Source: Candidatus Bathyarchaeia archaeon (GTDB lineage: Archaea > Thermoproteota > Bathyarchaeia > Bathyarchaeales > Bathycorpusculaceae). From it: a stretch of DNA of 64,000 nt. Below, piece after piece: positions 1 to 60,229 of the stretch (the first letter of the stretch is position 1; each line of letters starts with the position of its first letter). Made by a program: the position numbers and the translations under genes. The notes under the pieces were generated by a model. It was not told the DNA's origin. It saw only the letters and a program-made list of their open reading frames with translations, and searched no databases. Location of the stretch: the NCBI GenBank assembly GCA_041447175.1, contig CP166960.1:2000519-2064518 (forward strand), read 5' to 3'.

Positions 1-162
1 GCCATGGTTGAAGTCGTGGTTCGCATGCGCAAAGGCAACAAAACAGCCACAGCCACTGGAGTGCGCGAAGACATCGTCATGGCAAGCATGGACGCGGTAC
101 TTGCAGGCATGAACGTACTGACAGCGTTAAACGGCAACGGTACAAAAGCCGTGAACCAATAA
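1..162 (+). CDS. LeuA-family acyltransferase (2-isopropylmalate or citramalate synthase), C-terminal fragment
   Basis: The window opens inside a reading frame that encodes 53 residues and ends at a TAA. The stretch VREDIVMASMDAVLAGMN matches the end of the complete LeuA-family protein at 2356-3879 (AREDIVMASVEAMINGIN), which is the close of the LeuA dimerisation/allosteric domain. It is therefore a second LeuA-family paralogue, on the opposite strand. The catalytic HMGL domain lies outside the window, so isopropylmalate, citramalate and homocitrate-type activities cannot be told apart. Archaea often carry several such paralogues. Upstream neighbours are not visible. Confidence 0.75.
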   Translation, partial: AMVEVVVRMRKGNKTATATGVREDIVMASMDAVLAGMNVLTALNGNGTKAVNQ

Positions 163-9706: not shown

Positions 9707-9802
9707 GGGTTTGCTGGGGCTCTTGAGACGGAAATCAGGAGAGAAAGAAAATGAAAACTAACAAGCAAAGTTGGAATCATTTTCCAGAGCCCACTCAGCC
9801 CC
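9707..9802. repeat. 3' structured element, copy E1 (follows surface gene 1)
   Basis: First of eight copies of an unrecognised element of about 90-100 nt. Outer stem GCTG/CAGC with a 3-nt ACT bulge, then GGGCTCT pairing with AGAGCCC, then the invariant GGAGAGA, and an inner hairpin CTAAC/GTTGG around AAGCAAA. A 1-nt shift (GGAATCA versus GGAAATTCA in other copies) argues against a conserved peptide. It ends 68 nt before the stop codon of surface gene 1 (minus strand). Its strand of action is unknown. Confidence 0.8.
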
Positions 9803-19111: not shown

Positions 19112-21772
19112 TTATTTTCGTCTAAGCACTAACACTGCAGCAGCTGCAACAACTACGATGACGGCTACGGCGATAGTGATGTAGATGGTTGCTGGTGTAC
19201 CTGCGGTGGTGGATGGTTGTGGAGCTTCACTGGGTGAAGGCGAGGCGGGCGTTGGTGTTACTACGGCTGGTGTTGCTGTGTCAGATGGCTGGGTTGGCAC
19301 CACAGCTGGCGCGGCTGCTGTGGCTTCTGAAACGATAAAGGCTGCTCCTGCTTGGCTGCGGTAGTATGATTCTGAGCCATCAAAGGTTGCAGTCACCGTG
19401 TATGTTCCTGGAACGGGCGGAGTCCACGCATACGCAAAATTGCCAAGAGAGTCAGTAACTGTGGTCGCAATATCCTGTGTATTTCCATTGGGGTCAACAG
19501 CAGTCAAATGCACTGAAACGCCTAAAACATCGTTAGGCTTAGGCTTCTGCATGTACACATACTCCATCCAAGCACTCATGCAATCATCAGAAACCGCAGG
19601 AACACCATTGGGGAAGCGAGTTGTCTGTTCGTTTTGGTTTGTGCCCGCCGCGATGTCAGTGACGGTACCTTGGATTAGTACGGGGGTTCCTTGGGGTACA
19701 GCAATGTTTGGTGCGGTGACGGTGGTTGCGGTTGGACCTTTACCTAGGGCGTAGAGTTGGCTGTCGTAGGTGTTGAAATAGACTAGGTAACCGTCGGCAA
19801 TTACGCCGGCTCTGTTAGCGTGGTTGGTTGAAGAAGGCCAGCTAAGTAAACTCCAGATTTGTTCGCCGGTTGTTGCGTTGATACAGTATACCATTGCGTC
19901 TTTGCGTGAGGGTTTATCGTTTGAGTGCTCGTAGGTGAAGGTGTAGATTTTTCCGTCAGCGATGTTGCCTATGTAAATTGGCCAGTTGGGGTAGGGTTCT
20001 CCTAGTGGTGTGTGCGTGCTGTTTCCTGGACCGCCGTTGCCAAATGTCCACAAAAGGTCGCCTGTCTTTATGTCCATAGCATAGATTATTCCGCCTGTTC
20101 CTGCAGAGTACAATATGCCGTTAGCTAGGGATTGTGCACCAGCATGATAGCCGCCCATTCCACCGTAAGAGTAGTAGTTGAAGGCGGTTTCGTCGCCGAC
20201 TGGCCCCCAAAGCAAGCTTCCGTCATCCATGCTGTAGCCGGACCACTGCATTGTCTGCTGGTCTGCAAGCGTAAACACGCGGTTTTCGATGTCAGTTAGA
20301 CCCCATTGGCGTGTGACGTTTCCGACAGTGGTGTAATCCTTGATCCATAAGAGTTCGCCTCGTGATTCGGGTTTCAGGCTAATTGCAAACACGGTGTATG
20401 CCAATTCAGTCTCTGTGTGGTATCTCGTAGTTGAGGCGGAACCGAAGCTTCCAAGCAGCATGTCTTCAGGGATGACTTTGCGCACTGTTGGATTGCCATA
20501 GCCGTTAAGGCGGGGGATTGTTACGTTCCAAGTATAGGCGCTGCTCATGTCAACTGATTTCCCGTTAGGTCTCCATTGATAAGCTGCAGTGCTTGTTTCA
20601 TCGGTGGCGCCTTCTAAGCCCACATTGTGCTGAGTATTGTTCCACAAAGCAAGCCAATGGTTATTGTTTTCAATGACGTAACGTACTATTTCGCCGCGCG
20701 GACCGTACATGATGTTGCTGCCTGACGGAACGTTGGTTAAGTTGTAGAGCCAAAGCCCAGTTAATGAATCGTATGCCATCCAAGTTGTTCCACTTACACG
20801 CCACAGAGTTCCATCGGGTATAACGCCGTGCTGATTTTGAGATTCATAGTCGAAGAGTTGACCAAACGATGGAAGAGCGGTTGTCCATTCTTGTGACCAG
20901 AGGGTTTCGCCAGTGGTCAAATCAACACACAAGTAGCCGCCGCCAGAGTTCGCATGCCCCAACGGCAGTGGATAGTAGAGTCTTCCATGTATGATCATTG
21001 GATTGCCAAAGCGCACCTCGTATGATTCTCCAGCATAGTATGTTATGTCCGAAACAGGGTAGCTTCCGCCGACAACACCTCCATCTTGGAGGGGCTTTGT
21101 CCACATAACATGTGGGCTGTTTGGAGCCGCACCATTTGGCTGAACATTATATGTTTCAGCGGGTCCTGCACCAACAAGCCAGTTGGATGCGATAGTAGCC
21201 CAAGCAGTGTTTTGTCCTTCTATGGGTCGCGTCCAGTACTCCGTTGGAAGGGGATAGCTTGAGGGTGGAGACACTTCGTCTTGTTGCACCACTAAGTCAA
21301 GTGTGGCGCTGCTGGGCAGGAAAGTGTCGTTTACGTAGTCGCTGGGTTGGCCGATTTCACCTGTTGGTCCATACAACGAGAGGACCTGCCCTGGGAACTT
21401 GAAGGTCATGGTGTATGTTCCAATGGAGTCAGGGGTGTACATAGCGTAGCCTCCTCCAATAGGGTCAGACGTGAAAGGACCCAAAGTTTCGGTGGTTCCG
21501 TCTGGCTTGTTGATTTCTACGGTTAAGTCACGCCACCTGTCGCCGCCCAATCCTTGAGAGGTTGCGGGCACTTGGTTAATCCAAAAAACAATAAGGACAG
21601 TCTGGTCCACGCCGACGGGGTTGGGTGAAGCTGAAATATAAGCCCATGTTGGGACATCCAAAGCGGGTTCATGCGCGATGGCGGTTGGCAAAGCAAATAA
21701 TGTGGCAGCGATTGAAAGCGTCATAATCAGTGTAGCCACGGTTGCGATTTTTTTATTTTTTAAACTTATCAT
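19112..21772 (-). CDS. Surface protein 3: Ig-like / PQQ beta-propeller / Ig-like / C-terminal anchor (GGDRW subfamily)
   Basis: This 886-residue secreted protein has a signal segment (ATLIMTLSIAATLFALPTAIAHE) and an N-terminal Ig-like domain with the GGDRW motif shared with surface proteins 5, 6 and 8. A PQQ-type propeller has CVDLTTGETLWSQ, AMDIKTGDLLWTF and CINATTGEQIWSL. The second Ig-like domain contains VHLTAVDPNGNTQDIA and VTATFDGSESYYRS. The end is a Pro/Thr/Ser linker, TAGTPATIYITIAVAV helix and LRRK. ATG 21772 has GGAG about a dozen bases upstream. The divergent regulator is an Lrp/AsnC-type protein, as for the other GGDRW members. Confidence 0.85.
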   Translation of the reverse strand: MISLKNKKIATVATLIMTLSIAATLFALPTAIAHEPALDVPTWAYISASPNPVGVDQTVLIVFWINQVPATSQGLGGDRWRDLTVEINKPDGTTETLGPFTSDPIGGGYAMYTPDSIGTYTMTFKFPGQVLSLYGPTGEIGQPSDYVNDTFLPSSATLDLVVQQDEVSPPSSYPLPTEYWTRPIEGQNTAWATIASNWLVGAGPAETYNVQPNGAAPNSPHVMWTKPLQDGGVVGGSYPVSDITYYAGESYEVRFGNPMIIHGRLYYPLPLGHANSGGGYLCVDLTTGETLWSQEWTTALPSFGQLFDYESQNQHGVIPDGTLWRVSGTTWMAYDSLTGLWLYNLTNVPSGSNIMYGPRGEIVRYVIENNNHWLALWNNTQHNVGLEGATDETSTAAYQWRPNGKSVDMSSAYTWNVTIPRLNGYGNPTVRKVIPEDMLLGSFGSASTTRYHTETELAYTVFAISLKPESRGELLWIKDYTTVGNVTRQWGLTDIENRVFTLADQQTMQWSGYSMDDGSLLWGPVGDETAFNYYSYGGMGGYHAGAQSLANGILYSAGTGGIIYAMDIKTGDLLWTFGNGGPGNSTHTPLGEPYPNWPIYIGNIADGKIYTFTYEHSNDKPSRKDAMVYCINATTGEQIWSLLSWPSSTNHANRAGVIADGYLVYFNTYDSQLYALGKGPTATTVTAPNIAVPQGTPVLIQGTVTDIAAGTNQNEQTTRFPNGVPAVSDDCMSAWMEYVYMQKPKPNDVLGVSVHLTAVDPNGNTQDIATTVTDSLGNFAYAWTPPVPGTYTVTATFDGSESYYRSQAGAAFIVSEATAAAPAVVPTQPSDTATPAVVTPTPASPSPSEAPQPSTTAGTPATIYITIAVAVIVVVAAAAVLVLRRK

Positions 21773-41076: not shown

Positions 41077-41164
41077 GGGTTTGCCGAAACTCTGGACCGA
41101 TCTAGGAGAGATGATGAACAATCAAACGAGCAAGTGTGATTGCTCCCAGAGTTAACTCGGCCCC
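41077..41164. repeat. 3' structured element, copy E5 (divergent copy, follows surface gene 5)
   Basis: The most diverged copy, and the best evidence for a fold. The outer stem is GCCGA (41083-41087) with TCGGC (41157-41161). The next stem is AACTCTGG (41088-41095) with CCAGAGTT (41146-41153), with an AAC bulge. The inner stem is AATCA/TGATT around an AACGAGCAA loop. Nearly every difference from the other copies is matched by its partner base. GGAGAGA and AGCAA are unchanged. It ends 58 nt before the stop of surface gene 5. Confidence 0.8.
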
Positions 41165-41222
41165 TCCAACAAGCCAAGCGTTCCGGTTTTCAAAGAAAAA
41201 AGGGATGTTTGTTGTTTTGGCA

Positions 41223-43871
41223 TCACTTTCGTTTCTTCAAGATGAGGGCTACTGCTACAAGGGCAATGATAACCACTGCAGCGCCTATTGCCAGATAGGT
41301 TGCGGTTGGAGCACCACTAGTTGGTTGAACTGCTTGGGAGGGTGAAGGGGAAAGTGTCTGCGTAGGTGTTGAAGTTGGTGGGGATGTCGGAGCGGAAGTT
41401 TGTGGGGGTGTTGCTGTAACGATTGGCTCAGGGGCAGAGGTTACGCCGATAGCGGTCACTGCATGGGAAGGCCAGTATGAGCAGGTTCCTTCGAAGGTGG
41501 CGGTTATGGTGTATTCGCCTTCAACTGGTGGGGTCCAAAGTTTCTTGAACATACCGTCTTTGTCAGTTGTTACTGAGCCGATGATTTGCGTGTTGCCGTT
41601 GGGGTCAAGAGCAGTCAACTCTACTGTGACGCCAGTTGCGTCTGAGGGCAGGGGTTTTTGCATGTAAAGGTACTCCATCCATTCGCTCATGCTTTCGTCG
41701 GAAATTGCGGGGGTGCCTGCCGCGGGGATGCCAAGGCAAGTTTGACCAGGTGATTGGTCGGTGACTGCGCCTTCGATTAGGACGCTGCTACCTTGGGTTG
41801 TGACTTTGGGTGACGCCGAGACGGCTGTGGCGCTCAGTCCTTGGCCAAAGCAGTATATTTGCATGTCATAGAGGTTCAGGTAGATTACGTATCCGTCGGC
41901 GACTGCAACGCTGCCGTCTGCGCCCCATCCAGCGACATTCCAAAGTTCGGTGCCGTTGAATGCGTCGATGCATCGGAATTTAGAGCCTGTCCAGTGGGGT
42001 GCGTTTGCTGAGTGCTCGTAGCTGTAGGCGTAGAGTTTGCCATCTGCGACCGCGCCAATTAGCAAGGAGAAGGCACCATAGGGCGTTGCGAACGTGGGTG
42101 GTTGAGTGTAGTTCCAAAGCAGGTCACCGGTTTTCATGTCGTAACAGTAGATTATGCCAGAGTAGCCAGTGGTGTATAGTCGTCCGTAGTTGACCGCGGA
42201 TGCGCCTACGCCGAAGGCTCCAGTGGTTAGGGCATAGAAGTTCCAGTCATCTTCTGATTGGGTTGGTCCCCAAACTTGCGCTCCGGTGTCCATGCTGTAG
42301 CCTACCCATTGGATGGTTTCTTTGTAGTAGAGGGTGAATACGCGGCTGATTGGGTCAATTTGTCCCATTGAAACGGAAATGTTGCCGCTGGGAGCAGTCA
42401 TTGGTTGTGTCCACAACACTTTGCCTATGTCTCCCTTGGAGGCATTGAGGTTTATTGCCCAAAGCGTGTAGTCAGACCATGAAGTTCCAACTGTTGGAAA
42501 AGCGCCTGTTCTGCCAATAACCATGTCACCGTACACTGCTTTTAAGATGGAAGCCCCCGCGCCTACGGATGAGGGAAGGGTGACGTTCCATGAATAGGCA
42601 TTGCTTGCATCAGTGACTTTGCCTACGGGGCGCCATTGGAATGCGCCGCTGCTGGTTGTGTCTGTTGGGGAGGTAGCGCCAGTTAATGCTTGAACTGCCG
42701 TGTTATTCCACAGGGCTAACCAGTTGCCTGTTGGGCTGAGTTGGTAGATTAGGATTTCACCGTTTGGACCATACACGTTGGTTCCTGCAGGAACGCCAGT
42801 CAGAGTGAATAGCCAGTTTCCGTCAATTGGGTCATATGCAGTCCAGTTAGCTGGGCCCACGGGACCAAAAAAGCCGCCGCCTGTGGTTGCCCACATGAAG
42901 CCGTTTGGAACAACCCCGTGTTGGTTCATTGATTCATAGTCGTAAAGCTGAGCAAAAGAGGGCATAGGCATGTTTTGCCAGTAAATTTGTTCGCCTGTGC
43001 GTAAGTCGACGCAGACATAGCCGTCGCCTGAGGGAACGTCGCTTCGGGGCAGATTGTAGTAGAGTCTGCCGTTGATGATTAGGGCGCTACTCATTTTTCC
43101 TTCGTATGCGGTTCCAGAGTAGTAGGTCATGCCGTCGGTTCCAGTTCGAGTTCCACCCACAACGCCTCCGAACGAGAGGGGTTTTGTCCACATGATGTGC
43201 GCAGTGTTAGCGGCTGCGCCGTCTAGTTGTACACGTCCTGAAATTTGTGGGCTGCCAAGCCAGTTTGAAGCTAATGTAGCCCAGTTGGTGTTTTGTCCTT
43301 CAATTGGGCGCGTCCAATAGTTGGTTGGAAGCGGATAGCTTTCGGGGGTAGGCAACCGTTCTTGCTGAACTATAAGGGTAGTGGTTGCAGTGCTAGCGGA
43401 GAAAGTGTCATTTACGTAGTTGCTGGGTGAGCCAGGGACACCAGTGGGACCGTTCAACGCGGCTACTTGCCCTGGGAAGTTAAAGACGAAAGTGTAAGTA
43501 CCAATCTGGTCAGGTGTGTAGGCAGTGTAAGCACCACCCACAGGGTCAGATGTGAATGGCCCCAAAAGCTCAGTTTGTCCATCAGGTTTAGTGACTTCAA
43601 TGGTTAAGTCTACCCAGCGGTCACCACCAGAACCAGCAGCGGTTGGTGGAGGCCAGTTAAGCCAAAAGACTACGGCAGCGATTTCGCCGACACCCACAGT
43701 TTTGGGTGCAGCCGTGATGTAGGCATAAGTGGGTATGGTCCATGCAGGGTCATGAGCGGCAGCAATAGGGAGGACGGAGAAAACAGAGACAACAAGTGCA
43801 AAAAACAGCGTGGCAGCAAGGAGTTCGTTTTTTCTAATTTTAAACCTTTTAGTTAACGGATTATTTTTCAT
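41223..43871 (-). CDS. Surface protein 5: Ig-like / PQQ beta-propeller / Ig-like / C-terminal anchor (GGDRW subfamily)
   Basis: This 882-residue protein has a signal segment LLAATLFFALVVSVFSVLPIAAAHD. The GGDRW-type N-terminal Ig-like domain is followed by a propeller with CVDLRTGEQIYWQ, CYDMKTGDLLWNY and CIDAFNGTELWNV. The second Ig-like domain has VELTALDPNGNTQIIG and ITATFEGTCSYWPS. The end is a linker, SGAPTATYLAIGAAVV helix and LKKRK. ATG 43871 has GGAGAGAAGG upstream. It is the only surface gene without its own divergent regulator: surface gene 6 lies upstream on the same strand. Confidence 0.85.
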   Translation of the reverse strand: MKNNPLTKRFKIRKNELLAATLFFALVVSVFSVLPIAAAHDPAWTIPTYAYITAAPKTVGVGEIAAVVFWLNWPPPTAAGSGGDRWVDLTIEVTKPDGQTELLGPFTSDPVGGAYTAYTPDQIGTYTFVFNFPGQVAALNGPTGVPGSPSNYVNDTFSASTATTTLIVQQERLPTPESYPLPTNYWTRPIEGQNTNWATLASNWLGSPQISGRVQLDGAAANTAHIMWTKPLSFGGVVGGTRTGTDGMTYYSGTAYEGKMSSALIINGRLYYNLPRSDVPSGDGYVCVDLRTGEQIYWQNMPMPSFAQLYDYESMNQHGVVPNGFMWATTGGGFFGPVGPANWTAYDPIDGNWLFTLTGVPAGTNVYGPNGEILIYQLSPTGNWLALWNNTAVQALTGATSPTDTTSSGAFQWRPVGKVTDASNAYSWNVTLPSSVGAGASILKAVYGDMVIGRTGAFPTVGTSWSDYTLWAINLNASKGDIGKVLWTQPMTAPSGNISVSMGQIDPISRVFTLYYKETIQWVGYSMDTGAQVWGPTQSEDDWNFYALTTGAFGVGASAVNYGRLYTTGYSGIIYCYDMKTGDLLWNYTQPPTFATPYGAFSLLIGAVADGKLYAYSYEHSANAPHWTGSKFRCIDAFNGTELWNVAGWGADGSVAVADGYVIYLNLYDMQIYCFGQGLSATAVSASPKVTTQGSSVLIEGAVTDQSPGQTCLGIPAAGTPAISDESMSEWMEYLYMQKPLPSDATGVTVELTALDPNGNTQIIGSVTTDKDGMFKKLWTPPVEGEYTITATFEGTCSYWPSHAVTAIGVTSAPEPIVTATPPQTSAPTSPPTSTPTQTLSPSPSQAVQPTSGAPTATYLAIGAAVVIIALVAVALILKKRK

Positions 43872-43911
43872 TTCCTTCTCTCCTTGAGGTTTTCTTCAAT
43901 TACCAATCTTG

Positions 43912-43928
43912 TCAGCATATATAAGATT
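43912..43928 (-). promoter_or_regulatory. Surface gene 5 TATA box
   Basis: Minus-strand ATCTTATATATGCTG lies about 45 nt upstream of ATG 43871, so this gene has its own promoter and is not simply co-transcribed with surface gene 6. The 175-nt gap between the two genes contains no structured element. Confidence 0.5.
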
Positions 43929-44046
43929 TTTCTTTAAACATACACAGAAAGAAAAAAAATAAATTTATAGACAATAAAAACAGCCGAAAATACCCAAAAA
44001 AAAGGGAGTGTATAAGAAACAGGCAAAAAAAGAAAAGAAAGGGAGG

Positions 44047-46731
44047 TTACTTGCGACGCTTAAGCATCAAGGCAGCTGCAGCCACCACAACAATGACCAC
44101 TACTGCACCGATGGCGATGTATGTCGTTGTGGGTTCACCGCTGGTCGGTTGAGGGGCAATGCTAGGCGAGGGAGAAGTTGGCGTTTGCGTGGGTGCCTGA
44201 GTCTGCGCCGGCGAAGTGGGTGCTATTGTCGGGGAGGGCGTTGTGACTATGGGTGCGGCTGCTTCCATTACGCCGATTGCTGTTTCTGCACTTGAGGGCC
44301 AGTAAGAGCTGCTTCCTTCAAATGTGGCAATAACTGTGTATTTTCCAGGCACTGGTGGCGACCACAAATAGCTGTACAGTCCGCTTTTGTCTGTTGTTAC
44401 GTTGCCCATGTCTTGAGTGTTTCCGTTGGGGTCAAGAGCAGTCAAATGCACTTGCACACCCTCCACATTTGTCGGCATTGGTTTCTGCATGTAAAGATAC
44501 TCCATCCATTCACCCATGCTTGCGTCAGAAACTGCGGGGACAGTGTTGAATTCGCCGCTGTCAACCAGTTGTTTTGCGCCTGCTGCGCGGTCGGTAACTG
44601 TTCCACGGATTATCAGGCTTTGACCGTGGTTTATGGCTACGGAGGGGGCGTCAACCGTTACTTCGCTGGGTCCTTTGCCGATGCAGTAGACTTGCATGTC
44701 ATAGAGGTTAAGGTAAACAAAGTAGCCGTCTGCAATTGCTGCACCGCCGTCACCGTATGACGAGGCGCCGTGTGCATATAGAGTCCACAGTTCGTCACCA
44801 TTGGTTACATCTAAACAGCGCACTTTTGCCTGCTTCCAGTAAGGCGCACCAGAAGAGTGTTCGTTAGTGGCCAAGTATATCTTGCCATCAGCAATTCCAG
44901 AAATGCCAAGCGGATAGCCGCTGTAGGGTGTTTCCAGCCCAGAAGGCGCATTATAAGTCCACAGGACATCACCATTTGTCAGGTCATAGCAGTATACTTC
45001 ACCAGAGTATCCAGTTGAGAAAAGCTTGCCGTATGCTGCTGCGGAGGTTGTCATGGCACCGCCTGCGCCTGAATAGAAGTTCCAGGGGTTTTCAGAGGCG
45101 GTCGTCCAAAGTTCCGAGCCAGTGTCCATGCTGTAGCCGGTCCATGAAATGGTCTCTTTGTCAAAGTAGGTAAAGACACGTGCAGTCGCATCAATTGCCC
45201 CGAAGGCGCGGGTGGCATTTCCTGACGGCGCGGGCATCTCCATCGTCCACAGCAGTTGACCGCGGTTTTCTTCTTTCAAACTCAAAGCGCTAACGGTGGT
45301 GATTGCAGGGGTGCCAAAGCCAAGGAAAGAAGTCAAGGGAGTGCTGACAATAACCATGTCATCGTAGACCACGGCGACTATGGAGGAGCCAGATGTTAGT
45401 TGGGGTATTGTCACGTTCCAAGAGTATGCGTTGCTTGCATCAACTGTTTTGCCTACGGGACGCCATTGATAATAGTCGGTGCTTGTGTAGTCGGCGGGGT
45501 TTGTGGATGCAGTCAGGGCTTGCACTGCCGTGTTATTCCATAGAGCCAACCAGCCATTCTGAACGTTGAGGATATAACGCAGTATCTCGCCGTGTGGACC
45601 CATGATTTCTGTGCCAGTGGGTACGTTTGTCAGCGTGAATAACCATTCGCCATTTAGCGGGTCGTATGCAGTCCAGTTAGCGGGACCTACAGGTCCAAAG
45701 AAGCCACCGCCTGTTGTAGACCACAAGTAACCGTTGGGGATAACTCCGTGCTGATTCATTGATTCGTAGTCGTAAAGCTGAGCAAACGAGGGCGCCTTTA
45801 GAGTGTTACCTAAAGTGGTGCTATGCCAAAGTTCCTCGCCTGTTTGTAAGTCAACACAAACGTATCCGCCGCCGGTGGTAGCGTCGCTTTTAGGTAGGCT
45901 GTAGTAGAGTCTGCCGTTGAGAATTATAGGGTCACCAAATTTGCCTTCATAGTTGGTTCCATCATAATAGGTGATGTCGTTTGGAAGGGTATTGCTTCCT
46001 CCTACGACACCTCCGAAGGAGAGCGGTTTGGTCCACATTATGTGAGCACTTGCTGGAGCAACACCATCAGGTTGGAAGTGCCCAGTTATTGCGCTTCCAG
46101 ACAGAGAGTTCGATGCGATGGTTGCCCAGTTGGTGTTTTGTCCTTCAATGGGTCGGGTCCAGTAGCTTGTCGGCAAAGGAAAATCTGCGACTGCTGATAC
46201 CGCTGCTGGTTGAACAACAAGCGTTGCCGTTGCTGTGCTAGCGAGGTAGGTGTCGTTGACATAGGCGCTTGGGCTACCAATCAAACCCGTTAGAGGGTTA
46301 TATAGACTGGCAACCTGACCAGGAAAGGTGAACACAAAAGTGTACTTTCCTGTCTGGTCAGGGGTGTAACTAGCGTAACCGCCGCCAACTGGGTCGGAAG
46401 TCAGTGGCCCTAAGGTTTCGGTGTGTCCATCGGGTTTGGTGACTTCAATTGTCATATCAACCCAGCGGTCACCGCCAAAGCCAGCTGCGGTAGGCGGAAC
46501 CTTATCCAGCCAGAAGATGAGAGATACTGGTTGTCCAACGCCCACGGGGTCAGGAGCAGCGGTAAGATAAGCATATGTTGGGACTTCTTGCGGGGGATCA
46601 TGTGCAGAGACGTTTGGCAGAGCAACGAGCGTGGAAGTAAGGATAAGTGCCAGAAATAGCGTGGTCAGAGTTGCCGCAACTTTGTGGGTTGAGGTCTTTC
46701 TCATGAGAATGTTTCCTATCGAAACGTTCAT
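44047..46731 (-). CDS. Surface protein 6: Ig-like / PQQ beta-propeller / Ig-like / C-terminal anchor (GGDRW subfamily)
   Basis: 894 residues from ATG 46731, which has GGAGAAAAG upstream; a longer frame exists but would start before the TATA box. The signal segment is LTTLFLALILTSTLVALPNVSAHD. It has a GGDRW-type Ig-like domain, a propeller with CVDLQTGEELWHS, CYDLTNGDVLWTY and CLDVTNGDELWTL, and a second Ig-like domain with VHLTALDPNGNTQDMG. The end is a linker, SGEPTTTYIAIGAVVV helix and LKRRK. It is the closest relative of surface protein 8, with patches of identical DNA. The divergent Lrp/AsnC-type gene at 46924 is its likely regulator. No structured element follows it; a purine-rich/U-rich tract does. 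Confidence 0.85.
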   Translation of the reverse strand: MNVSIGNILMRKTSTHKVAATLTTLFLALILTSTLVALPNVSAHDPPQEVPTYAYLTAAPDPVGVGQPVSLIFWLDKVPPTAAGFGGDRWVDMTIEVTKPDGHTETLGPLTSDPVGGGYASYTPDQTGKYTFVFTFPGQVASLYNPLTGLIGSPSAYVNDTYLASTATATLVVQPAAVSAVADFPLPTSYWTRPIEGQNTNWATIASNSLSGSAITGHFQPDGVAPASAHIMWTKPLSFGGVVGGSNTLPNDITYYDGTNYEGKFGDPIILNGRLYYSLPKSDATTGGGYVCVDLQTGEELWHSTTLGNTLKAPSFAQLYDYESMNQHGVIPNGYLWSTTGGGFFGPVGPANWTAYDPLNGEWLFTLTNVPTGTEIMGPHGEILRYILNVQNGWLALWNNTAVQALTASTNPADYTSTDYYQWRPVGKTVDASNAYSWNVTIPQLTSGSSIVAVVYDDMVIVSTPLTSFLGFGTPAITTVSALSLKEENRGQLLWTMEMPAPSGNATRAFGAIDATARVFTYFDKETISWTGYSMDTGSELWTTASENPWNFYSGAGGAMTTSAAAYGKLFSTGYSGEVYCYDLTNGDVLWTYNAPSGLETPYSGYPLGISGIADGKIYLATNEHSSGAPYWKQAKVRCLDVTNGDELWTLYAHGASSYGDGGAAIADGYFVYLNLYDMQVYCIGKGPSEVTVDAPSVAINHGQSLIIRGTVTDRAAGAKQLVDSGEFNTVPAVSDASMGEWMEYLYMQKPMPTNVEGVQVHLTALDPNGNTQDMGNVTTDKSGLYSYLWSPPVPGKYTVIATFEGSSSYWPSSAETAIGVMEAAAPIVTTPSPTIAPTSPAQTQAPTQTPTSPSPSIAPQPTSGEPTTTYIAIGAVVVIVVVAAAALMLKRRK

Positions 46732-46775
46732 TTTCTTTTCTCCTAATTTTCCGTAAAGGACACCTTTCAGCAGAA

Positions 46776-46790
46776 TTTGTATATAACATT
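46776..46790 (-). promoter_or_regulatory. Surface gene 6 TATA box
   Basis: Minus-strand GTTATATACAAATT at about 46776-46789, some 48 nt before ATG 46731, the same spacing as in the other surface genes. No clear inverted repeat follows it; upstream there is a short direct repeat AAAACTGACAAAAACTGACA on the + strand. Confidence 0.5.
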
Positions 46791-46923
46791 TATCCAAATA
46801 TCGGCAAAAAAAGAAAAAAAACCAACCAAAACTGACAAAAACTGACAGAAAAGAAGTGTTCAAAAGCTTTAACTGTAACGAAAAAAATACTTAAAGAAAA
46901 TAACTGGCAGCAAGGATACAGAA

Positions 46924-49647: not shown

Positions 49648-52248
49648 TTACTTGTGTCTTTTCAGAACGACTGCTGCTACGACTACGGCTATGATAACTG
49701 CTGCCGCGGTTATCGCAATGTAAGTTGTCGGCGGTACACCGCTAGTTGCTGGCTGTGGAGCTTCGCTAGGCAAGGGTGAAGGCGCAACTGACTGTACTGG
49801 AGCTGAAGAGGACGATGTTGGTGTCTGAGATGCCGGTTGAGTTGGCGTGGCTATCGCTGGCGCTGCTGCTTCCGATACAAAGAAAGCTGCTGTTTTTGAC
49901 GATGAACCATAGTAGGATGCGCTTCCTTCGAAAGTTGCCGTAACTACGTACTTGCCGGATACTGGTGGAACCCATAGAGTACTATAGGAGCCCGTATAGT
50001 CGCTAGTTATGTAGCCTAGGTCTTGGAAGTTACCGTTCGGGTCAATGGCCGTCAAATGCACTTCAACACCAGTCACGTCAGTTGGCTTTGGCTGCTGCTC
50101 GTACACGTATTCCATCCATTGAGTCATGCTCTCATCAGAAACACACGGAAGACCATACGGAAAGTTTGCTGCAACCGCTTCCTGATAAGAACCAGCAGAA
50201 ATATCAATTACCGTTCCCTGAAGCAGTACTTCATTGCCTAACGACTGAACAGAGTCGGGTGCCGTAACTGTTGTGGCGCTTGGACCTTTACCATACGCGT
50301 AAATCTGATTGTCATAGTCGTTGTGTGCTAAAAGGACACCATCTGCTATAACGAGGTTATCAGTGGTGAACGAACTGGTGCTCCAAAGCAAGACTCCAGA
50401 AGTGGCGTTTACGCAGTAAAGTTGCATGCCTCGAAACAGTGGGTCTCCATGCGAGACGCCATTTGTTACATATACTTTTCCGTCCGCAACAAGGATTGCA
50501 GCGTGTATGAAAGGATAGTAGTTGAAGCTCGGAACGTCCGCGCCACTCTGATATCCACTAAATGACCACAGTTCCTGGCCATTTGTTAGGTTAAAAGCTC
50601 GAACACCAGCTGCAGTTACTCCATATAGAACTCCGCTAGAGATTGCAGAACCACCGGAAACGGGCACTGAACCCCAGGGATCAGGATCAGGTACTGTCGG
50701 ACCCCACAACAGCTCTCCAGTGTAAGCATTCCAGCCATACCACTGCATAGCATAAGCATCATACGTAGTAAACACACCATCAGCCATAGGCCCCATTTGA
50801 TAGGCATAGGAGGTTGCAGGCCCCGACGGGAGTGTTACATTAGCAACCCAAAGCTGTTGCCCTGTTGTCGAGTCATAACCTACTATCATTGTAGAGCCGA
50901 GTGGACTAACAGACGCACTTTGTCCGCTAATTTGAGCCGTAAGTACTACGCCTGAATTAATTTTTGTTATTGATTCTCCAGAGTAAGTTGTTACCGAAAC
51001 GTTCCATTGTAAACCAGCACTCCAGCTAAGACTCGCATTGATTCCAGGTCTCCAAGTCCAGTCGTCAATGTGCCTAAAGAGGTTATATTGAGTGGATTCT
51101 TGGATGCACTGAGATGAGTTCCACATTGCTATCCAACCCTTTCCGAGAATGTATGCCAGCAACTCACCGTTAGGGCCTGTCACCATAGTGCCGCTTGTTG
51201 CACCATTAATTTGCAATATCTGATTTCCTGTGTTAGCATCGTACATATACCAAGTGGAGCCTGCAGTATTCCACAAGTATGGTGTACCGCCCTCTTGATT
51301 TGGGGTATCAAAGCTGTAAACTTGACCTAATGTTATTGCTTGCGGTCGATTAGGATTAGTTGCAGGACTGGTGGCATTGCAGCACCACAGGGTCTGTCCT
51401 GTTTTCAGATTTACCGCATAGTATCCCTGGTAAGGAGCAATGGGCGCATTATAGTAAAGTACTCCGTTGATTACGACTGGGGGAGTGAAGGCCTGTTGAT
51501 AATCCCGACCTTGATAGTAATTGCTTGTAAGACTGCTTCCGAATTCGCCCCCGATTAGTCCTCCAGCCATCAGAGGCTTTGTCCAAAGAATATGAGCACT
51601 ATCAGGACCCGTTGTGTATGGGGCAGCATAGTCACTGTAACTGTCAGCTTCTGCTGGAGTTGTAGCAAACCAATTTCCTGAGACCGAGTACCACTCTTGG
51701 TTTTGAGAGTTTATTGGACGTGCCCAGTAACTTGTGGGAAGTGAAGCTTGTGGCGTTGACGATGAGGATATGTTTTGTACTGTGAGCGTTGTCGAGAAAC
51801 TGCTTGGTGCGTAATAAGCGTCTACAGGTGCTCCGAGAACTCCAGTTCCTGTAACATGCTGTCCTGGAAAACTGAACTTTAGGGTGTAGTTGCCAATTTG
51901 ATCAGGTGCATATAGAGTGTTTGCAAATGCTGCGTTGTCTGCTGTAAACGGACCCAACGTTTGACTGGTTCCGTCCGGCTTAGTTATTGCCATTGTGTAA
52001 CCATCCCATCTAACGCCAGTATCGATTATGTCTGTTGTTAGTGGATTGATTATGTTCAGCCACATTGAGATGGTTACTTGCTGATTAATTCCTGCTGGAT
52101 TTGGGGAAGCGCTAAGATATGCATACGTAGGAAGAGTTGTCTGAGCATTAGCCAATGACAAGGAAGCCATTAGCATTGAAGTGACAAGCACCATCAAAAC
52201 AAAAACTGATATTGCTTTGTTTAGTTTTTTTTTAAAGCTATTTTCCAA
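49648..52248 (-). CDS. Surface protein 7: Ig-like / PQQ beta-propeller / Ig-like / C-terminal anchor
   Basis: 866 residues from TTG 52248 (GAGG upstream). The signal segment is AISVFVLMVLVTSMLMASLSLANAQ. The N-terminal Ig-like domain lacks GGDRW. The propeller contains AVNLKTGQTLWCC, AFNLTNGQELWSF and CVNATSGVLLWST. The second Ig-like domain has VHLTAIDPNGNFQDLG and VTATFEGSASYYGS. The end is a linker rich in Ser/Pro, SGVPPTTYIAITAAAV helix and LKRHK. Divergent from a TrmB-type regulator, with a long near-palindrome between them. Function unknown. Confidence 0.85.
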   Translation of the reverse strand: MENSFKKKLNKAISVFVLMVLVTSMLMASLSLANAQTTLPTYAYLSASPNPAGINQQVTISMWLNIINPLTTDIIDTGVRWDGYTMAITKPDGTSQTLGPFTADNAAFANTLYAPDQIGNYTLKFSFPGQHVTGTGVLGAPVDAYYAPSSFSTTLTVQNISSSSTPQASLPTSYWARPINSQNQEWYSVSGNWFATTPAEADSYSDYAAPYTTGPDSAHILWTKPLMAGGLIGGEFGSSLTSNYYQGRDYQQAFTPPVVINGVLYYNAPIAPYQGYYAVNLKTGQTLWCCNATSPATNPNRPQAITLGQVYSFDTPNQEGGTPYLWNTAGSTWYMYDANTGNQILQINGATSGTMVTGPNGELLAYILGKGWIAMWNSSQCIQESTQYNLFRHIDDWTWRPGINASLSWSAGLQWNVSVTTYSGESITKINSGVVLTAQISGQSASVSPLGSTMIVGYDSTTGQQLWVANVTLPSGPATSYAYQMGPMADGVFTTYDAYAMQWYGWNAYTGELLWGPTVPDPDPWGSVPVSGGSAISSGVLYGVTAAGVRAFNLTNGQELWSFSGYQSGADVPSFNYYPFIHAAILVADGKVYVTNGVSHGDPLFRGMQLYCVNATSGVLLWSTSSFTTDNLVIADGVLLAHNDYDNQIYAYGKGPSATTVTAPDSVQSLGNEVLLQGTVIDISAGSYQEAVAANFPYGLPCVSDESMTQWMEYVYEQQPKPTDVTGVEVHLTAIDPNGNFQDLGYITSDYTGSYSTLWVPPVSGKYVVTATFEGSASYYGSSSKTAAFFVSEAAAPAIATPTQPASQTPTSSSSAPVQSVAPSPLPSEAPQPATSGVPPTTYIAITAAAVIIAVVVAAVVLKRHK

Positions 52249-53586: not shown

Positions 53587-56262
53587 TCATTTGCGTTTCC
53601 GTAGTACAAGAACCGCTGCTGCAACGATGATGACAAGGACTGCTGCGGCTATGGCAACATATGTGATTGTTGGCGTGCCTGCGCTAGTTGGTTGTGGAGC
53701 TTCGCTGGGGGAAGGTGAAACGGGCTGTGTGGGGGTTGGGGTGGGTGCAACTGGAGTGGGTGTTGGTGCGGGTGGAGTTGGCGTTATCACAGCTGCTGCG
53801 GCTTCAGAGACAACAAACGAAGTTCCTGCCTCACTTGGATAGTAAGAGTTGGAACCTTCAAAGGTAGCGGTGACAATGTACACGCCTTCAACTGGCGGAG
53901 TCCACGGAATAGCATAGTTGCCTAAGTCATTGCTAATTGCTGTACCGATATCTTGACTGTTGCCGTTGGGGTCAATGGCAGTTAAATGCACTTCAACGCC
54001 AGTTACATCAGTGGGTTTTGGCTTTTGCATATGTATGTAATTCATCCAGTCGCCCATGCTTTCGTCAGACATCGCTGGAACAGTGTTGAATTCGCCGCTC
54101 TCAACTAACTGTTTAGCGCCTGCTGCTTTGTCGGTCACTGTTCCGCGGAGGAGCAGAGTTTGTCCCAGAGAAACAGCAGTCAAAGGTGCATCAACAGTAA
54201 CTTCACTTGGACCTTTACCGATGCAGTAGATTTGCATGTCGTAGTTGTTTAAGTATACAAAGTAGCCGTCTGCAATAGCCGCGCCAGCGTTACCAGAAGT
54301 TGAGGCGCCGTGACCATACAGAGTCCACAGTTCTGTGCCATCTGAAGTGTCTACGCATCGAACCAATACGCCTTTCCAGTATGGAGCGTTACATGAGTGC
54401 TCATTTGTGTGCAAATAGATTTTTCCATCCGCAACGCCAGCAATGCCCAGTGGGTATCCAGTGTAAGGGGTGTCTAACCCTGAGGGTGCATTATAAGTCC
54501 AAAGCAGGTCGCCTGTCTCTAGGTCGTAGCAGTAGAGTACGCCTGAATATCCAGTTGAGTAAAGTTTGCCTCCAGCTAACGAAACTGTGCTCATGGCGCC
54601 GCCGCCTCCAGAATAGAAGTTCCACGGGTTCTCAGAGGGCGTTGGACCCCAAAGTTCGTGCCCATCATCCATGCTGTAAGCGGTGTAAGAGATGGTTTCT
54701 TTGTCAAAGTAAACGAATGCACGAGCTGTGGCGTCTAATCCTACGAAGGAGCGCGTCTGGTTGCCAGCGGGTGCTGAAATGTCGACTGTCCACAGAATTT
54801 GACCTTTAGTTTCATCGTCTTTAACGCTTATTCCACTCACTGTGGTAGTTTCGGGTGTACCAAAGCCCAAGAAGCCCGTTAGGGGTGTACTAACAATCAC
54901 CACATCATTGTAGGATGCCCCGATTATGGAGGAGCCTGGAGCTAGTTGGGGTATTGTCACGTTCCAAGAGTATGCGTTGCTTGCATCAACTGTTTTGCCT
55001 ACGGGACGCCATTGGTTATAGTCTGTGCTTGTGTAGTCTGTCGGGTTCGCTGAGCCGGTTAAATCGTGGGGTGCAGTGTTATTCCAAAGTCCAAGCCAGT
55101 TACCCTGTGTGTTGAGTACGTATCGGAGTATCTCGCCGTTTGGTCCCCGAATCTCAGTGCCAGGAGGAACATTAGTTAGCTTGAATAGCATTTCGCCATC
55201 AAGTGGGTCATACGCCGTCCAATTTTCTGGACCTCCAGGACCAAAGAAACCACCGCCGCCACTAGTTGACCACAGATAGCCGTTAGGGATAACACCGTGC
55301 TGGTTTAAGGATTCGTAATCGTAGAGTTGTCCAAAGCTGGGTGCTGTTAGGGTATTGCCCAAATCAGTTCTGCTCCATAGTTCTTCGCCAGTTTGTAGGT
55401 CTACACAGACGTAGCCGCCGCCTATTACATCATTAAATCCGCCTGGTTGTGAGTTGCTTCGGGGGATTGTGTAGTAGAGTCGCCCGTACAGGATTATTGG
55501 GTTGCCGAATTTGTTTTCGTAGTTGGTCCCGTCATAGAAAGTTATGCCATTGGGAAGGGTAGTGCTTCCGCCGACAACACCGCCGAACTGAATTGGTCTA
55601 GTCCACATCACGTGTGCACTGCCAGGGGCATCACCGTCAGGCTGATATCTAGTTTTGATAGCACTTCCAGAAAGCCAATTCGAGGCAACTGTAGCCCAAT
55701 TGGTGTTTTGCCCATCTATAGGTCGCGTCCAGTAACCGCTCGGAAGAGGGAAGTCTTCTGTCGGACTTATCGGCGCAGACTGCACTGTCAGGGAAGTTGA
55801 AAAGCTGCTTGGCAGGTAGTAGTCGCCGATGTAGGGGCTTGAACTACCAGGTAAGCCGGTGACAGGGTTGTTGAGACCCAAGACTTGACCTGGAAAGTTG
55901 AAGACAAAATTGTAAACCCCCACTTGGTCAGGCGTGTATAGGGCATAACCGCCTCCTACAGGGTCAGATACAAAGGGGCCCAAGGTTTCGGTGTGTCCAT
56001 CGGGTTTGGTGACTTCAATTGTCATATCTGTCCAGCGGTCACCGCCAAAGCCAGCTGCGGTAGGCGGATATTTGTCAAGCCAGAAAACAAGGGTTATTTG
56101 TTGGTCCACACCAATGGGGTCAGGGGCAGCGGTAAGATAAGCATATGTTGGGACTTCTTGCGGGGGATCATGTGCGACTGCGTTTGGCAAAGCAAGCATA
56201 GACATAGCGATTGTCAGAATCAAGATTGTCGAAACTATAATTTTGTTTATTTTTCTCTCCAA
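53587..56262 (-). CDS. Surface protein 8: Ig-like / PQQ beta-propeller / Ig-like / C-terminal anchor (GGDRW subfamily)
   Basis: 891 residues from TTG 56262; the signal segment is KIIVSTILILTIAMSMLALPNAVAHD. It has a GGDRW-type Ig-like domain and a propeller with CVDLQTGEELWSR, CYDLETGDLLWTY and CVDTSDGTELWTL. The second Ig-like domain has VHLTAIDPNGNSQDIG and VTATFEGSNSYYPS. The end is a Pro/Thr repeat linker, SAGTPTITYVAIAAAV helix and LRKRK. DNA is identical to surface gene 6 over a 72-nt run (54943-55014) and other long patches. The divergent Lrp/AsnC-type regulator is split in two. Confidence 0.85.
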   Translation of the reverse strand: MERKINKIIVSTILILTIAMSMLALPNAVAHDPPQEVPTYAYLTAAPDPIGVDQQITLVFWLDKYPPTAAGFGGDRWTDMTIEVTKPDGHTETLGPFVSDPVGGGYALYTPDQVGVYNFVFNFPGQVLGLNNPVTGLPGSSSPYIGDYYLPSSFSTSLTVQSAPISPTEDFPLPSGYWTRPIDGQNTNWATVASNWLSGSAIKTRYQPDGDAPGSAHVMWTRPIQFGGVVGGSTTLPNGITFYDGTNYENKFGNPIILYGRLYYTIPRSNSQPGGFNDVIGGGYVCVDLQTGEELWSRTDLGNTLTAPSFGQLYDYESLNQHGVIPNGYLWSTSGGGGFFGPGGPENWTAYDPLDGEMLFKLTNVPPGTEIRGPNGEILRYVLNTQGNWLGLWNNTAPHDLTGSANPTDYTSTDYNQWRPVGKTVDASNAYSWNVTIPQLAPGSSIIGASYNDVVIVSTPLTGFLGFGTPETTTVSGISVKDDETKGQILWTVDISAPAGNQTRSFVGLDATARAFVYFDKETISYTAYSMDDGHELWGPTPSENPWNFYSGGGGAMSTVSLAGGKLYSTGYSGVLYCYDLETGDLLWTYNAPSGLDTPYTGYPLGIAGVADGKIYLHTNEHSCNAPYWKGVLVRCVDTSDGTELWTLYGHGASTSGNAGAAIADGYFVYLNNYDMQIYCIGKGPSEVTVDAPLTAVSLGQTLLLRGTVTDKAAGAKQLVESGEFNTVPAMSDESMGDWMNYIHMQKPKPTDVTGVEVHLTAIDPNGNSQDIGTAISNDLGNYAIPWTPPVEGVYIVTATFEGSNSYYPSEAGTSFVVSEAAAAVITPTPPAPTPTPVAPTPTPTQPVSPSPSEAPQPTSAGTPTITYVAIAAAVLVIIVAAAVLVLRKRK

Positions 56263-57634: not shown

Positions 57635-60229
57635 TTATTTTCGTCTTCTCAACACAAGAACAGCTGCAACTGCAATTATGACTATTACGGCTGCACCTAT
57701 CGCGATGTAGGTTGTGGTCGGCATAGCGCTGGTTGGTGGCGGGGGTGCTTCGCTGGGGGAAGGTGAAACTGACTGCAGGGGTGTTGGAGTGGAGACCGTT
57801 GGGATTGTTGGAGCTACTACTGCAGGTACCGCTGCGGATGTTTCTGAGACTACAAAGGAGGTTCCTGCCTCGCTGCCGTAGTAGGCGTTGGAGCCTTCGA
57901 AAGTTGCAGTGACCGTGTAAAAGCCAGATACTGGTGGCGTCCATGGAACTGCAAAGTTGCCCAGTTCATCCGTGGTTACTGTTCCGATTTCTTGGGTGTT
58001 GCCGTTGGGGTCAAGAGCAGTCAGATACACTGATACGCCTGTCACATCTGGCTTTGGAAATTGTTTGTAGACGTAGAGCATCCAGTCACTCATACTTTCA
58101 TCCGATACAGCGGGTACACCGTTGGGGAAGCGGGCGGTTAGGGCGTATTCTTGGGTGCCTGGGGAGATGTCAGTCACGGTGCCACGCATTACTAAGCTGT
58201 TGCCTGCGGCTATGCCAGTCAGGGGCGCCTCCACGGTTGTCGCGCTGGGTCCTTTGCCTATGGCATAAATACGCTGGTCGTAGGTGTCCATTGTTGCGAT
58301 TATGCTGTCGCCGATGATAGCACGTCCACCCCAGCGGGTTTGTCGGAACATGCCATCTACTTTCCAGATTTCTTCGCCAGTTTCAGCATCCAGACAAATG
58401 AAGGGTGCACCTCTTGGTCGGGGGTCAATAGCTGAATGTTCGTAGTGACCGACGTAGAGTTTTCCGTCCGTAACAAACAGAGGTCTTAGCCACCAAGTGT
58501 TAGCCCACAAGATTTCGGTGTATGTGTCGTTGGCTTCATATTTCCAGAGGCGGTCACCGGTTTGGACGTCATAGCAGTATACGATACCGCTGACGCTTGC
58601 CGAGTAGAGTTTTCCGTAGGCGATGACTCGGGCTCCAGCTTTAGTGTCGTCCAAAGCATCTAAGTAGTACTGGGATTCGGTTGGTCCCCACATGTACTCG
58701 CCTGTTGTTAGGCTAAAGCCATAGTTTTGGCAGGTTTCCTTTGAGAACAGAACGCCAACGTTATCTTCCGCGCTTGCGGTCATCCATTGCACAGTTTGGT
58801 TGCCTGAAACCCAATCAGCGGGAGCAGCCCAGGTGTTATCGAATAGCAAAGTGCCTTCCTGACCTTGTTTGAGGCTTAAGCCCCACATTCTAACGGAGGA
58901 AGAGGTTATTTGTGCACCAACAACTTTGTCGTCGTAGTATGTCGCTACGACGCTACCAGTCAGCCCTGTGGGTATGGTGATGTTCCATTGGATTCCACGG
59001 GAAGCAGGGAACACTCGGGGGTACTGTGCAGTGTTTAGGTATCGACCCCAACTGCCGTCTTGGCTGCTACCTGTGTCTTGGGGGTTAACGGTTTTGCTTG
59101 AATTCCAAAGAGTCATCCAACCTGCATCTGTGTTGAGGGTGTATCGGTAGATTTCGCCATGTGGACCGTATACGTTGCTGCCTGAAGGCACATCGGTTAC
59201 AGTGTATGACCAGTCACCAGTGAAAGCATCATATGCGTTCCAGGTGGTGCCGCTGGTTGTCCACAGGTAAGTGAAAACGCCGTGCCCGTTGAATCCGTCC
59301 CAGTAGAAGGTTTGACCAAACGATAAGCTTTGAACCACGCCGTTAGCGTCTAAGAGGGGTTTACACCAGAGTTCTTCGCCTGTGTGCAGGTCAACTGCGC
59401 AGACCTCCTGGTTTTCTATAGCTACGCTTCCTCTGCCTTGGGTGTTAATTGTGTTGTAGTAGAGAATTCCGTTGATAATCACGGACGAGAGGAATTTGCC
59501 TTCGTAAGCATCCCCCATCTCCATAGAGTGCCCATCAAGGTCACCTCCTACCAATCCGCCCATTTCAAGCGGTTTTGTCCAGAGCACGTGGGCACTTTCA
59601 GGTCCATCATTGTATGGTGCGTACAGGTTGTCAGGTGAAGCGACCCAGCTTCCTGCAATTGATGCCCATTCCCTGATTTGAGAGTCAATTGGACGTGTCC
59701 AGTATTCTGTTGGAAGTGAAAAGCCAGGATAGGACGGAGGCATTGTTTCTTGAACAACAACCGAAAGAGGTTCGCTACTGCTGGCTAAAAGCAATGTACC
59801 TGCTGCGCCAGTTCCACTTATGGTCGCCGTGAGTGGCCCTTGATCAGGAGAGTGAGTTTGGAAGGTGTATATGCCAACTTGATCGGCCATGTAAACGGTG
59901 CCTGTTCCGCCGGTTAAGTCAGTAGTAAGGGGACCCAAGGTCTCTTTTGTGCCGTCGGGTCTTGTGACATCCACGGTCAGACCTGTCCAAGGTCCTTGTT
60001 GCCAATTTGAGGCATCTGTAATTCCCACGTGCAACAGGATTTCTTGTCCAACACCAGCAGGGTTAGGCAAAGCCCCGATGTAAGCGTAAGTTTGCTTCTG
60101 AACTTGAGCATTAGAGGTTGGAAGGGTAAGCAGAGGCATTGCAAGAGCTATCAATAGGAGTAGACAGAAAGCTTTGGAGAGTTGCCGTTGTTGAGTCTTC
60201 CGATTTGTAAAATATTGTATTATAGACAT
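57635..60229 (-). CDS. Surface protein 9: Ig-like / PQQ beta-propeller / Ig-like / C-terminal anchor
   Basis: 864 residues from ATG 60229 (GGAGACGAAG upstream). The signal segment is LSKAFCLLLLIALAMPLLTLPTSNAQ. The N-terminal Ig-like domain is without GGDRW. The propeller has AVDLHTGEELWCK, CYDVQTGDRLWKY and CLDAETGEEIWKV. The second Ig-like domain has VYLTALDPNGNTQEIG and VTATFEGSNAYYGS. The end is a linker, SAMPTTTYIAIGAAV helix and LRRRK. Divergent from a TrmB-type regulator. Last member of the array in this window. Confidence 0.85.
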   Translation of the reverse strand: MSIIQYFTNRKTQQRQLSKAFCLLLLIALAMPLLTLPTSNAQVQKQTYAYIGALPNPAGVGQEILLHVGITDASNWQQGPWTGLTVDVTRPDGTKETLGPLTTDLTGGTGTVYMADQVGIYTFQTHSPDQGPLTATISGTGAAGTLLLASSSEPLSVVVQETMPPSYPGFSLPTEYWTRPIDSQIREWASIAGSWVASPDNLYAPYNDGPESAHVLWTKPLEMGGLVGGDLDGHSMEMGDAYEGKFLSSVIINGILYYNTINTQGRGSVAIENQEVCAVDLHTGEELWCKPLLDANGVVQSLSFGQTFYWDGFNGHGVFTYLWTTSGTTWNAYDAFTGDWSYTVTDVPSGSNVYGPHGEIYRYTLNTDAGWMTLWNSSKTVNPQDTGSSQDGSWGRYLNTAQYPRVFPASRGIQWNITIPTGLTGSVVATYYDDKVVGAQITSSSVRMWGLSLKQGQEGTLLFDNTWAAPADWVSGNQTVQWMTASAEDNVGVLFSKETCQNYGFSLTTGEYMWGPTESQYYLDALDDTKAGARVIAYGKLYSASVSGIVYCYDVQTGDRLWKYEANDTYTEILWANTWWLRPLFVTDGKLYVGHYEHSAIDPRPRGAPFICLDAETGEEIWKVDGMFRQTRWGGRAIIGDSIIATMDTYDQRIYAIGKGPSATTVEAPLTGIAAGNSLVMRGTVTDISPGTQEYALTARFPNGVPAVSDESMSDWMLYVYKQFPKPDVTGVSVYLTALDPNGNTQEIGTVTTDELGNFAVPWTPPVSGFYTVTATFEGSNAYYGSEAGTSFVVSETSAAVPAVVAPTIPTVSTPTPLQSVSPSPSEAPPPPTSAMPTTTYIAIGAAVIVIIAVAAVLVLRRRK

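What the first reader, a model, noticed from the sequence alone, without database searches (positions are those of the whole stretch)
41077..41164. Compensatory base changes in the diverged copy E5 support a real fold
Compared with the other copies, E5 changes U-A to C-G in the outer stem and two G-C pairs to A-U in the next stem. All five pairs of the inner stem are replaced (CCAAC/GTTGG to AATCA/TGATT), while GGAGAGA and AGCAA stay the same. E4 also swaps the inner stem to CCC/GGG. Sequence changes but pairing is kept, as expected for a structured RNA or single-stranded DNA, not for a peptide or protein-binding linear site.
Basis: seen in the sequence. Interest (0 to 1): 0.72.

Follow-up and report, generated by a model that had tools for sequence, protein, structure and literature searches.

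The report
Archaeal 3'-end RNA fold matching start sites
Dozens of surface-protein genes in uncultured Bathyarchaeia archaea carry, just past their stop codon, the same folded ~95-base RNA-like element whose exposed loop is complementary to those genes' own translation start signals, which suggests a family-wide switch on making these proteins that nobody appears to have described.

Summary
E5 is one of 8 copies in the window, ~37 in this genome, and copies occur in 39 of 251 Bathyarchaeia genomes. At least 114 of 144 copies lie past the stop codon (mode ~60 nt) of a long opposite-strand gene, in the window PQQ/beta-propeller genes. Over ~140 copies the outer stems covary strongly: 29 same-branch Watson-Crick to Watson-Crick double changes versus 0-7 for slid partners. 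Uneven wobbles (70 vs 42 steps) and folding energies indicate RNA read in the PQQ-gene direction, i.e. the 3' UTR. Read that way, a mostly unpaired pyrimidine loop (CAU-N6-9-CUCC) is the reverse complement of a Shine-Dalgarno + AUG start site. It pairs much better with PQQ start sites than with other genes' (-17.0 vs -9.9 kcal/mol), same direction in 13 of 14 genomes, but no better with its own gene than with paralogues. Best explanation: a 3'-UTR anti-start-site regulator acting across the PQQ family; it works like the S. aureus icaR 3' UTR but is unrelated to it. No Rfam match. Expression is untested, and a conserved U-tract terminator lies just upstream.

The parts
41078..41164 (-). Element E5 (most diverged window copy); functional reading probably the - strand, 3' UTR side of the PQQ gene 41223-43871
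   Evidence: R1 hit 75.2 bits, E 4e-16; fold z -3.71 on - strand
41083..41086 (.). P1 arm GCCG, pairs with 41158-41161 (CGGC); U-A to C-G change in E5
   Evidence: P1 counts
41158..41161 (.). P1 arm CGGC
41087..41095 (.). P2 arm AAACTCTGG, pairs with 41146-41154; two G-C to A-U changes, one A.A mismatch
41146..41154 (.). P2 arm CCAGAGTTA
41155..41157 (.). Conserved 3-nt bulge ACT (AGU on - strand)
   Evidence: sequence; conserved in position in most copies
41080..41082 (.). Conserved 3-nt bulge TTT (AAA on - strand)
   Evidence: sequence
41120..41141 (.). Variable apical hairpin of E5 (AATCA..TGATT around ACGAGCAAGT)
   Evidence: sequence differs between genomes but folds
41103..41117 (-). Anti-start-site loop; + strand CTAGGAGAGATGATGA region, - strand complementary to Shine-Dalgarno and AUG of PQQ mRNAs
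41191..41207 (-). U-tract (CATCCCTTTTTTCTTTG on - strand) between PQQ stop and element; probable archaeal terminator
   Evidence: conserved in 97 listed 3' flanks and also in the 13 element-free PQQ genes
41223..43871 (-). PQQ_2 / beta-propeller surface protein gene, 882 aa, host gene of E5
   Evidence: Pfam PF13360 E 3.9e-9
43866..43886 (-). Start site of the host gene (AAGGAGAGAAGGAAATG), predicted pairing partner class of the loop
44047..46863 (-). Upstream paralogue, 938 aa, 175 nt before the 41223-43871 gene and without its own element (possibly co-transcribed)
9708..9802 (-). Element copy, downstream of PQQ-family gene 9871-12726
   Evidence: 91.4 bits
13722..13821 (-). Element copy, downstream of PQQ gene 13885-16389
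   Evidence: 81.7 bits
18959..19057 (-). Element copy, downstream of PQQ gene 19112-21772
   Evidence: 80.6 bits
23647..23742 (-).
   Evidence: 87.9 bits
49498..49592 (-). Element copy, downstream of PQQ gene 49648-52248
   Evidence: 98.4 bits
53428..53523 (-). Element copy, downstream of PQQ gene 53587-56262
   Evidence: 89.9 bits
57488..57582 (-). Element copy, downstream of PQQ gene 57635-60229
   Evidence: 75.2 bits

Best explanation
The element is a conserved structured RNA in the 3'-flanking transcript of PQQ/beta-propeller surface-protein genes. Shown: a two-part outer stem with fixed bulges, a variable apical hairpin, fixed placement after PQQ stop codons, and a mostly exposed pyrimidine loop complementary to the Shine-Dalgarno + AUG region of PQQ mRNAs as a class. 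Inferred: that the element is transcribed in the PQQ direction (by readthrough of the U-tract, or as the downstream product of terminator cleavage); that the loop pairs with PQQ start sites in cis or in trans; and that this masks the ribosome-binding site and damps translation of the whole paralogous family. The stems would present the loop.
For: Covariation of P1/P2: 29 WC-to-WC double events vs 0-7 slid; 71 vs 17.9 +/- 3.3. Strand: parsimony steps to A.C on + (G.U on the PQQ strand) 70 vs 42 to G.U on +; inner-region fold z -1.57 on the PQQ strand vs -0.86 on +. Placement: 114 of 144 next to a long opposite-strand ORF stop, mode ~60 nt; 38 of the 39 element-bearing genomes have PF13360 hits. 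Loop: CUCC segment unpaired probability 0.77 vs 0.42 overall; + strand GGAG-N6-9-ATG spacing peak, ATG in 93 of 142 vs 28 +/- 4 in shuffles. Targets: consensus loop vs PQQ start sites -17.0, other genes -9.9 kcal/mol, p 6e-11; difference -7.1 vs -2.1 +/- 1.0 for shuffled loops; PQQ sites stronger in 13 of 14 genomes; loop and PQQ start sites covary by genome, p 0.033 after removing row and column effects. Precedents: icaR 3' UTR anti-SD (PMC3868564); archaeal sRNA162 masks a ribosome-binding site (PMC3510493).
Against: No transcript data. A conserved U-tract, the usual archaeal terminator (PMC8716108), lies ~26 nt before the element, so the main mRNA may end before it. The loop pairs no better with its own gene's start than with paralogues' (permutation p 0.96), so cis action is not specifically supported. 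The genome-level loop/start-site covariation is weak (p 0.033) and not phylogenetically independent. The strand bias is moderate (53 vs 34 by genome and position). PQQ start sites are purine-rich and my start-codon choice used SD strength (in one search the words used to pick starts included GGAGAGA), which may inflate energies; one search used generic SD words only and several of its genomes are not significant alone. 13 PQQ genes of this genome lack the element.
Confidence: 0.5

Rival explanations
1. 3'-end processing or protection hairpin: the element only stabilises or finishes PQQ transcripts that escape the U-tract (blocks 3'-to-5' decay, or acts as a backup termination/cleavage site with its own U-rich loop).
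For: Fixed position after the U-tract; stable outer stem; located after the last gene where two PQQ genes lie in tandem (41223-46863); element-free PQQ genes keep only the U-tract.
Against: Does not explain the conserved CAU-N6-9-CUCC spacing or the excess complementarity to PQQ start sites over shuffled loops.
Confidence: 0.2
2. RNA on the + strand: a small RNA whose loop is itself a start-site mimic (SD + AUG), acting as ribosome decoy or attractor.
For: + strand GGAG-N6-9-ATG looks like this organism's own start sites; genome-level similarity to PQQ start sites is equally expected.
Against: Wobble bias and folding energies favour the other strand; no open reading frame is conserved (phases 30/29/22); by eye no shared promoter-like sequence 5' of the element on that strand (no formal scan); a same-strand gene of >=150 aa ends nearby in only 42 of 144.
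Confidence: 0.12
3. DNA-level element (cruciform or protein-bound inverted repeat, or recombination site for PQQ gene amplification) duplicated along with the genes.
For: Copies travel with a tandemly expanded family; a PQQ gene fused right at the element in L040; several elements in a row at 1407956-1408725.
Against: A DNA-only inverted repeat should show equal A.C and G.T intermediates; 70 vs 42 seen. Conserved asymmetric bulges and a conserved one-sided loop are unusual for a cruciform or dyad site.
Confidence: 0.12
4. Passive relic: the 3' flank is conserved only because paralogues are young.
For: Some copies are recent duplicates (A05DMB-2 group).
Against: Spacer sequences between stop and element have diverged while the arms stay conserved across two families of an order, with compensatory changes.
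Confidence: 0.03

Closest known systems
S. aureus icaR mRNA 3'-UTR / 5'-UTR pairing (PMC3868564)
   Same: A pyrimidine motif in a 3' UTR complementary to a Shine-Dalgarno region, able to act in cis or in trans
   Different: Bacterial, single gene, no shared structured module or homology; here an archaeal, multi-copy, family-wide structured element whose loop matches SD and AUG together
Methanosarcina mazei sRNA162 (PMC3510493)
   Same: Archaeal RNA whose single-stranded region masks a ribosome-binding site
   Different: Its own gene and different targets; not a 3'-flank module of a paralogous family
Staphylococcal UCCCC-motif sRNAs (RsaE, RNAIII; discussed in PMC3868564)
   Different: Unrelated sequence and fold; stand-alone sRNAs; bacterial
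Archaeal U-tract / aCPSF1 terminator (PMC8716108)
   Same: A U-tract of the same kind lies between PQQ stop codons and the element
   Different: The element lies beyond the U-tract and adds a structured module; element-free PQQ genes have the U-tract alone

Membership tests
Any Rfam 15 family | Score at or above a family's gathering threshold | tested here: not met
   0 hits in window; best E5-region chance hits 10-21 bits against cut-offs of 37-55
3'-UTR anti-Shine-Dalgarno regulator (icaR-like mode) | Located 3' of the coding sequence in the sense orientation | tested here: met
   114 of 144 copies, mode ~60 nt past the stop
3'-UTR anti-Shine-Dalgarno regulator (icaR-like mode) | Exposed motif complementary to the SD region of the target | tested here: met
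   predicted only:
3'-UTR anti-Shine-Dalgarno regulator (icaR-like mode) | Present in the mature transcript | not testable with these tools
   no transcriptome; a U-tract lies upstream
3'-UTR anti-Shine-Dalgarno regulator (icaR-like mode) | Pairing with its own mRNA specifically | tested here: not met
   matched pairs no better than permuted, p 0.96
3'-UTR anti-Shine-Dalgarno regulator (icaR-like mode) | Loss or change of the motif alters translation | not testable with these tools
   needs a reporter experiment
Integron attC site (considered) | Paired R/L core sites and diverse cassette genes beside an integrase | tested here: not met
   no GTTRRRY/RYYYAAC core at the arm ends (sequence); one gene family only; no search for an integrase was made
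MITE or IS-derived repeat (considered) | Insertions at varied sites, terminal repeats with target duplication | tested here: not met
   fixed orientation and distance to one gene family; target duplications not tested
Translated small ORF on + strand | Conserved reading frame after the ATG | tested here: not met
   phases 30/29/22

The most novel reading that the evidence does not exclude
Cleavage at each PQQ gene's U-tract terminator releases the downstream product as a structured small RNA whose loop silences the start sites of the whole PQQ family in trans: a pooled, dosage-sensing feedback that caps expression of a ~45-gene surface-protein family using its own terminator by-products.
Probability: 0.2. 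Interest if true: 0.85.

Novelty: new variant of a known kind. Interest (0 to 1): 0.66.

Why it matters
Post-transcriptional control in archaea is poorly charted, and 3'-UTR anti-start-site control is known mostly from single bacterial genes. If right, this is a structured RNA family of uncultured archaea that coordinates one of the largest expanded gene families of Bathyarchaeia, secreted PQQ-domain proteins proposed to act in lignin redox chemistry (PMC11697101). It is directly testable from metatranscriptomes.

Tried and rejected
Rfam, gathering and permissive: nothing. Conserved peptide on + strand: phases uniform. Gene-specific 3'/5' pairing: not supported (p 0.96). Pseudoknot between the purine-rich spacer and the loop: matched pairs no better than within-genome permutations (p 0.48). 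R-scape-like G-test with a tree null: 8 of the 12 best column pairs were proposed P2 pairs, but E-values were ~1-7 because the null had heavy tails; replaced by same-branch double substitutions and slid controls. Integron attC and MITE readings: orientation, spacing and single gene family argue against. Viral copies: the two IMG/VR pattern hits lack PQQ homology and are chance matches (one appears to be a tRNA). A pair count on A1 used a misregistered bracket string and is disregarded.

Full report
Observation. E5 (41078-41164) has the two outer stems and the complementary inner arms described; U-A to C-G and two G-C to A-U changes are there, plus one lost pair not mentioned. It folds far better than dinucleotide shuffles on either strand (z -4.25 and -3.71). 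The 'five replaced pairs' are a rebuilt, register-shifted stem rather than five column-by-column replacements.

Extent. A pattern search found ~30 places in the 2.73-Mb genome. An exact pattern scan of genome-contig hit only records titled Bathyarchaeota or Crenarchaeota (39 stretches). A covariance model found ~37 copies in the own genome and matches in 39 of 251 genomes of the class, in two families of one order. Of the 39, 38 are also listed with PF13360 hits; G216 is the exception.

Context. Of 144 copies, 114 lie 9-183 nt (nearly all 28-89, mode ~60) beyond the stop of a long opposite-strand ORF. Sampled window genes are PQQ_2/beta-propeller proteins (the 9871 gene hits only weak Ig-like models there but is in the family). 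Several of the 30 exceptions are contig ends, PQQ remnants or copies 5' of another PQQ gene. In the gene's sense: stop, A/C-rich spacer, CUUUCCCCUUUUUUAGU-like U-tract, ~26 nt, element. The 13 element-free PQQ genes examined keep a U-tract and have no detectable element.

Structure. Arm-anchored comparison of 142 copies with a tree gave 29 same-branch Watson-Crick double changes at P1/P2 versus 0-7 for slid partners, and 55 double changes of any kind versus 23.9 +/- 4.2 expected. The CM alignment agrees. The apical hairpin differs between genomes; its fold is supported by energies (inner z -1.57 on the PQQ strand) but its covariation is less clean (68.7% of cells paired).

Strand. Departures from Watson-Crick run 70 to A.C(+), i.e. 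G.U on the PQQ strand, versus 42 to G.U(+); by distinct genome, position and type 53 versus 34. The PQQ strand folds lower in 102 of 142 copies, the other in 38. The bias is moderate, so a DNA-level or + strand element is not excluded.

Loop. On the PQQ strand the conserved tract reads UUUUCAUUUUCUUUCUCUCCUAA. Its CUCC part is unpaired with mean probability 0.77. On the other strand this is GGAG-N6-9-ATG, the spacing of a start site, and ATG is present far above shuffles (93 vs 28 +/- 4). No frame is conserved. Predicted duplexes with PQQ start sites average -17.0 kcal/mol versus -9.9 for other genes in the own genome, in the same direction in 13 of 14 genomes. Own-gene pairing is not better than permuted. 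Loop and start sites covary by genome only weakly. The spacer pseudoknot is not supported.

Mechanism and status. Shown: conservation, structure, placement, complementarity. Inferred: transcription of the element, pairing in the cell, and repression. The chief difficulty is the U-tract before the element; readthrough, or the downstream product of cleavage after the U-tract (aCPSF1 cleaves downstream of U-rich motifs, PMC8716108), would both supply the RNA.

Known work. I found no description of this element: no Rfam match, and the paper on the PQQ expansion in Bathy-6 has no hit for 'intergenic', 'repeat' or 'untranslated' (PMC11697101). The closest working precedents are icaR (PMC3868564) and sRNA162 (PMC3510493). 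The literature search covered open-licence PMC papers only.

Noticed in passing
L040 1935-2029 (+): The first ~22 codons of a PQQ-like gene (start site and signal-peptide region) run straight into an element, as if the gene body had been deleted exactly up to it; a complete PQQ gene follows.
   Followed up: partly
G000:C1:1407956-1408725 (L015 1457-2226): Three elements in a row in the same orientation beyond one PQQ gene; two more in a row at G000:C1:335695-336359. Possibly remains of lost PQQ genes.
   Followed up: no
window 41223-46863: Two PQQ genes in tandem 175 nt apart with only the second followed by an element, as if the element marks the end of a transcription unit.
   Followed up: partly
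G000, 13 PQQ gene ends (L141-L153): PQQ genes without the element keep the U-tract (CYTTTTTT) right after the stop codon, so U-tract and element are separate modules.
   Followed up: yes
window 50-114 and 2398-2462: 65-nt inverted repeat, 74% complementary, arms 2283 nt apart.
   Followed up: no
own genome PQQ start sites: PQQ genes use GGAGAGA or GGAGAAA Shine-Dalgarno words in 17 of 33 cases versus 16 of 176 for other genes.
   Followed up: partly
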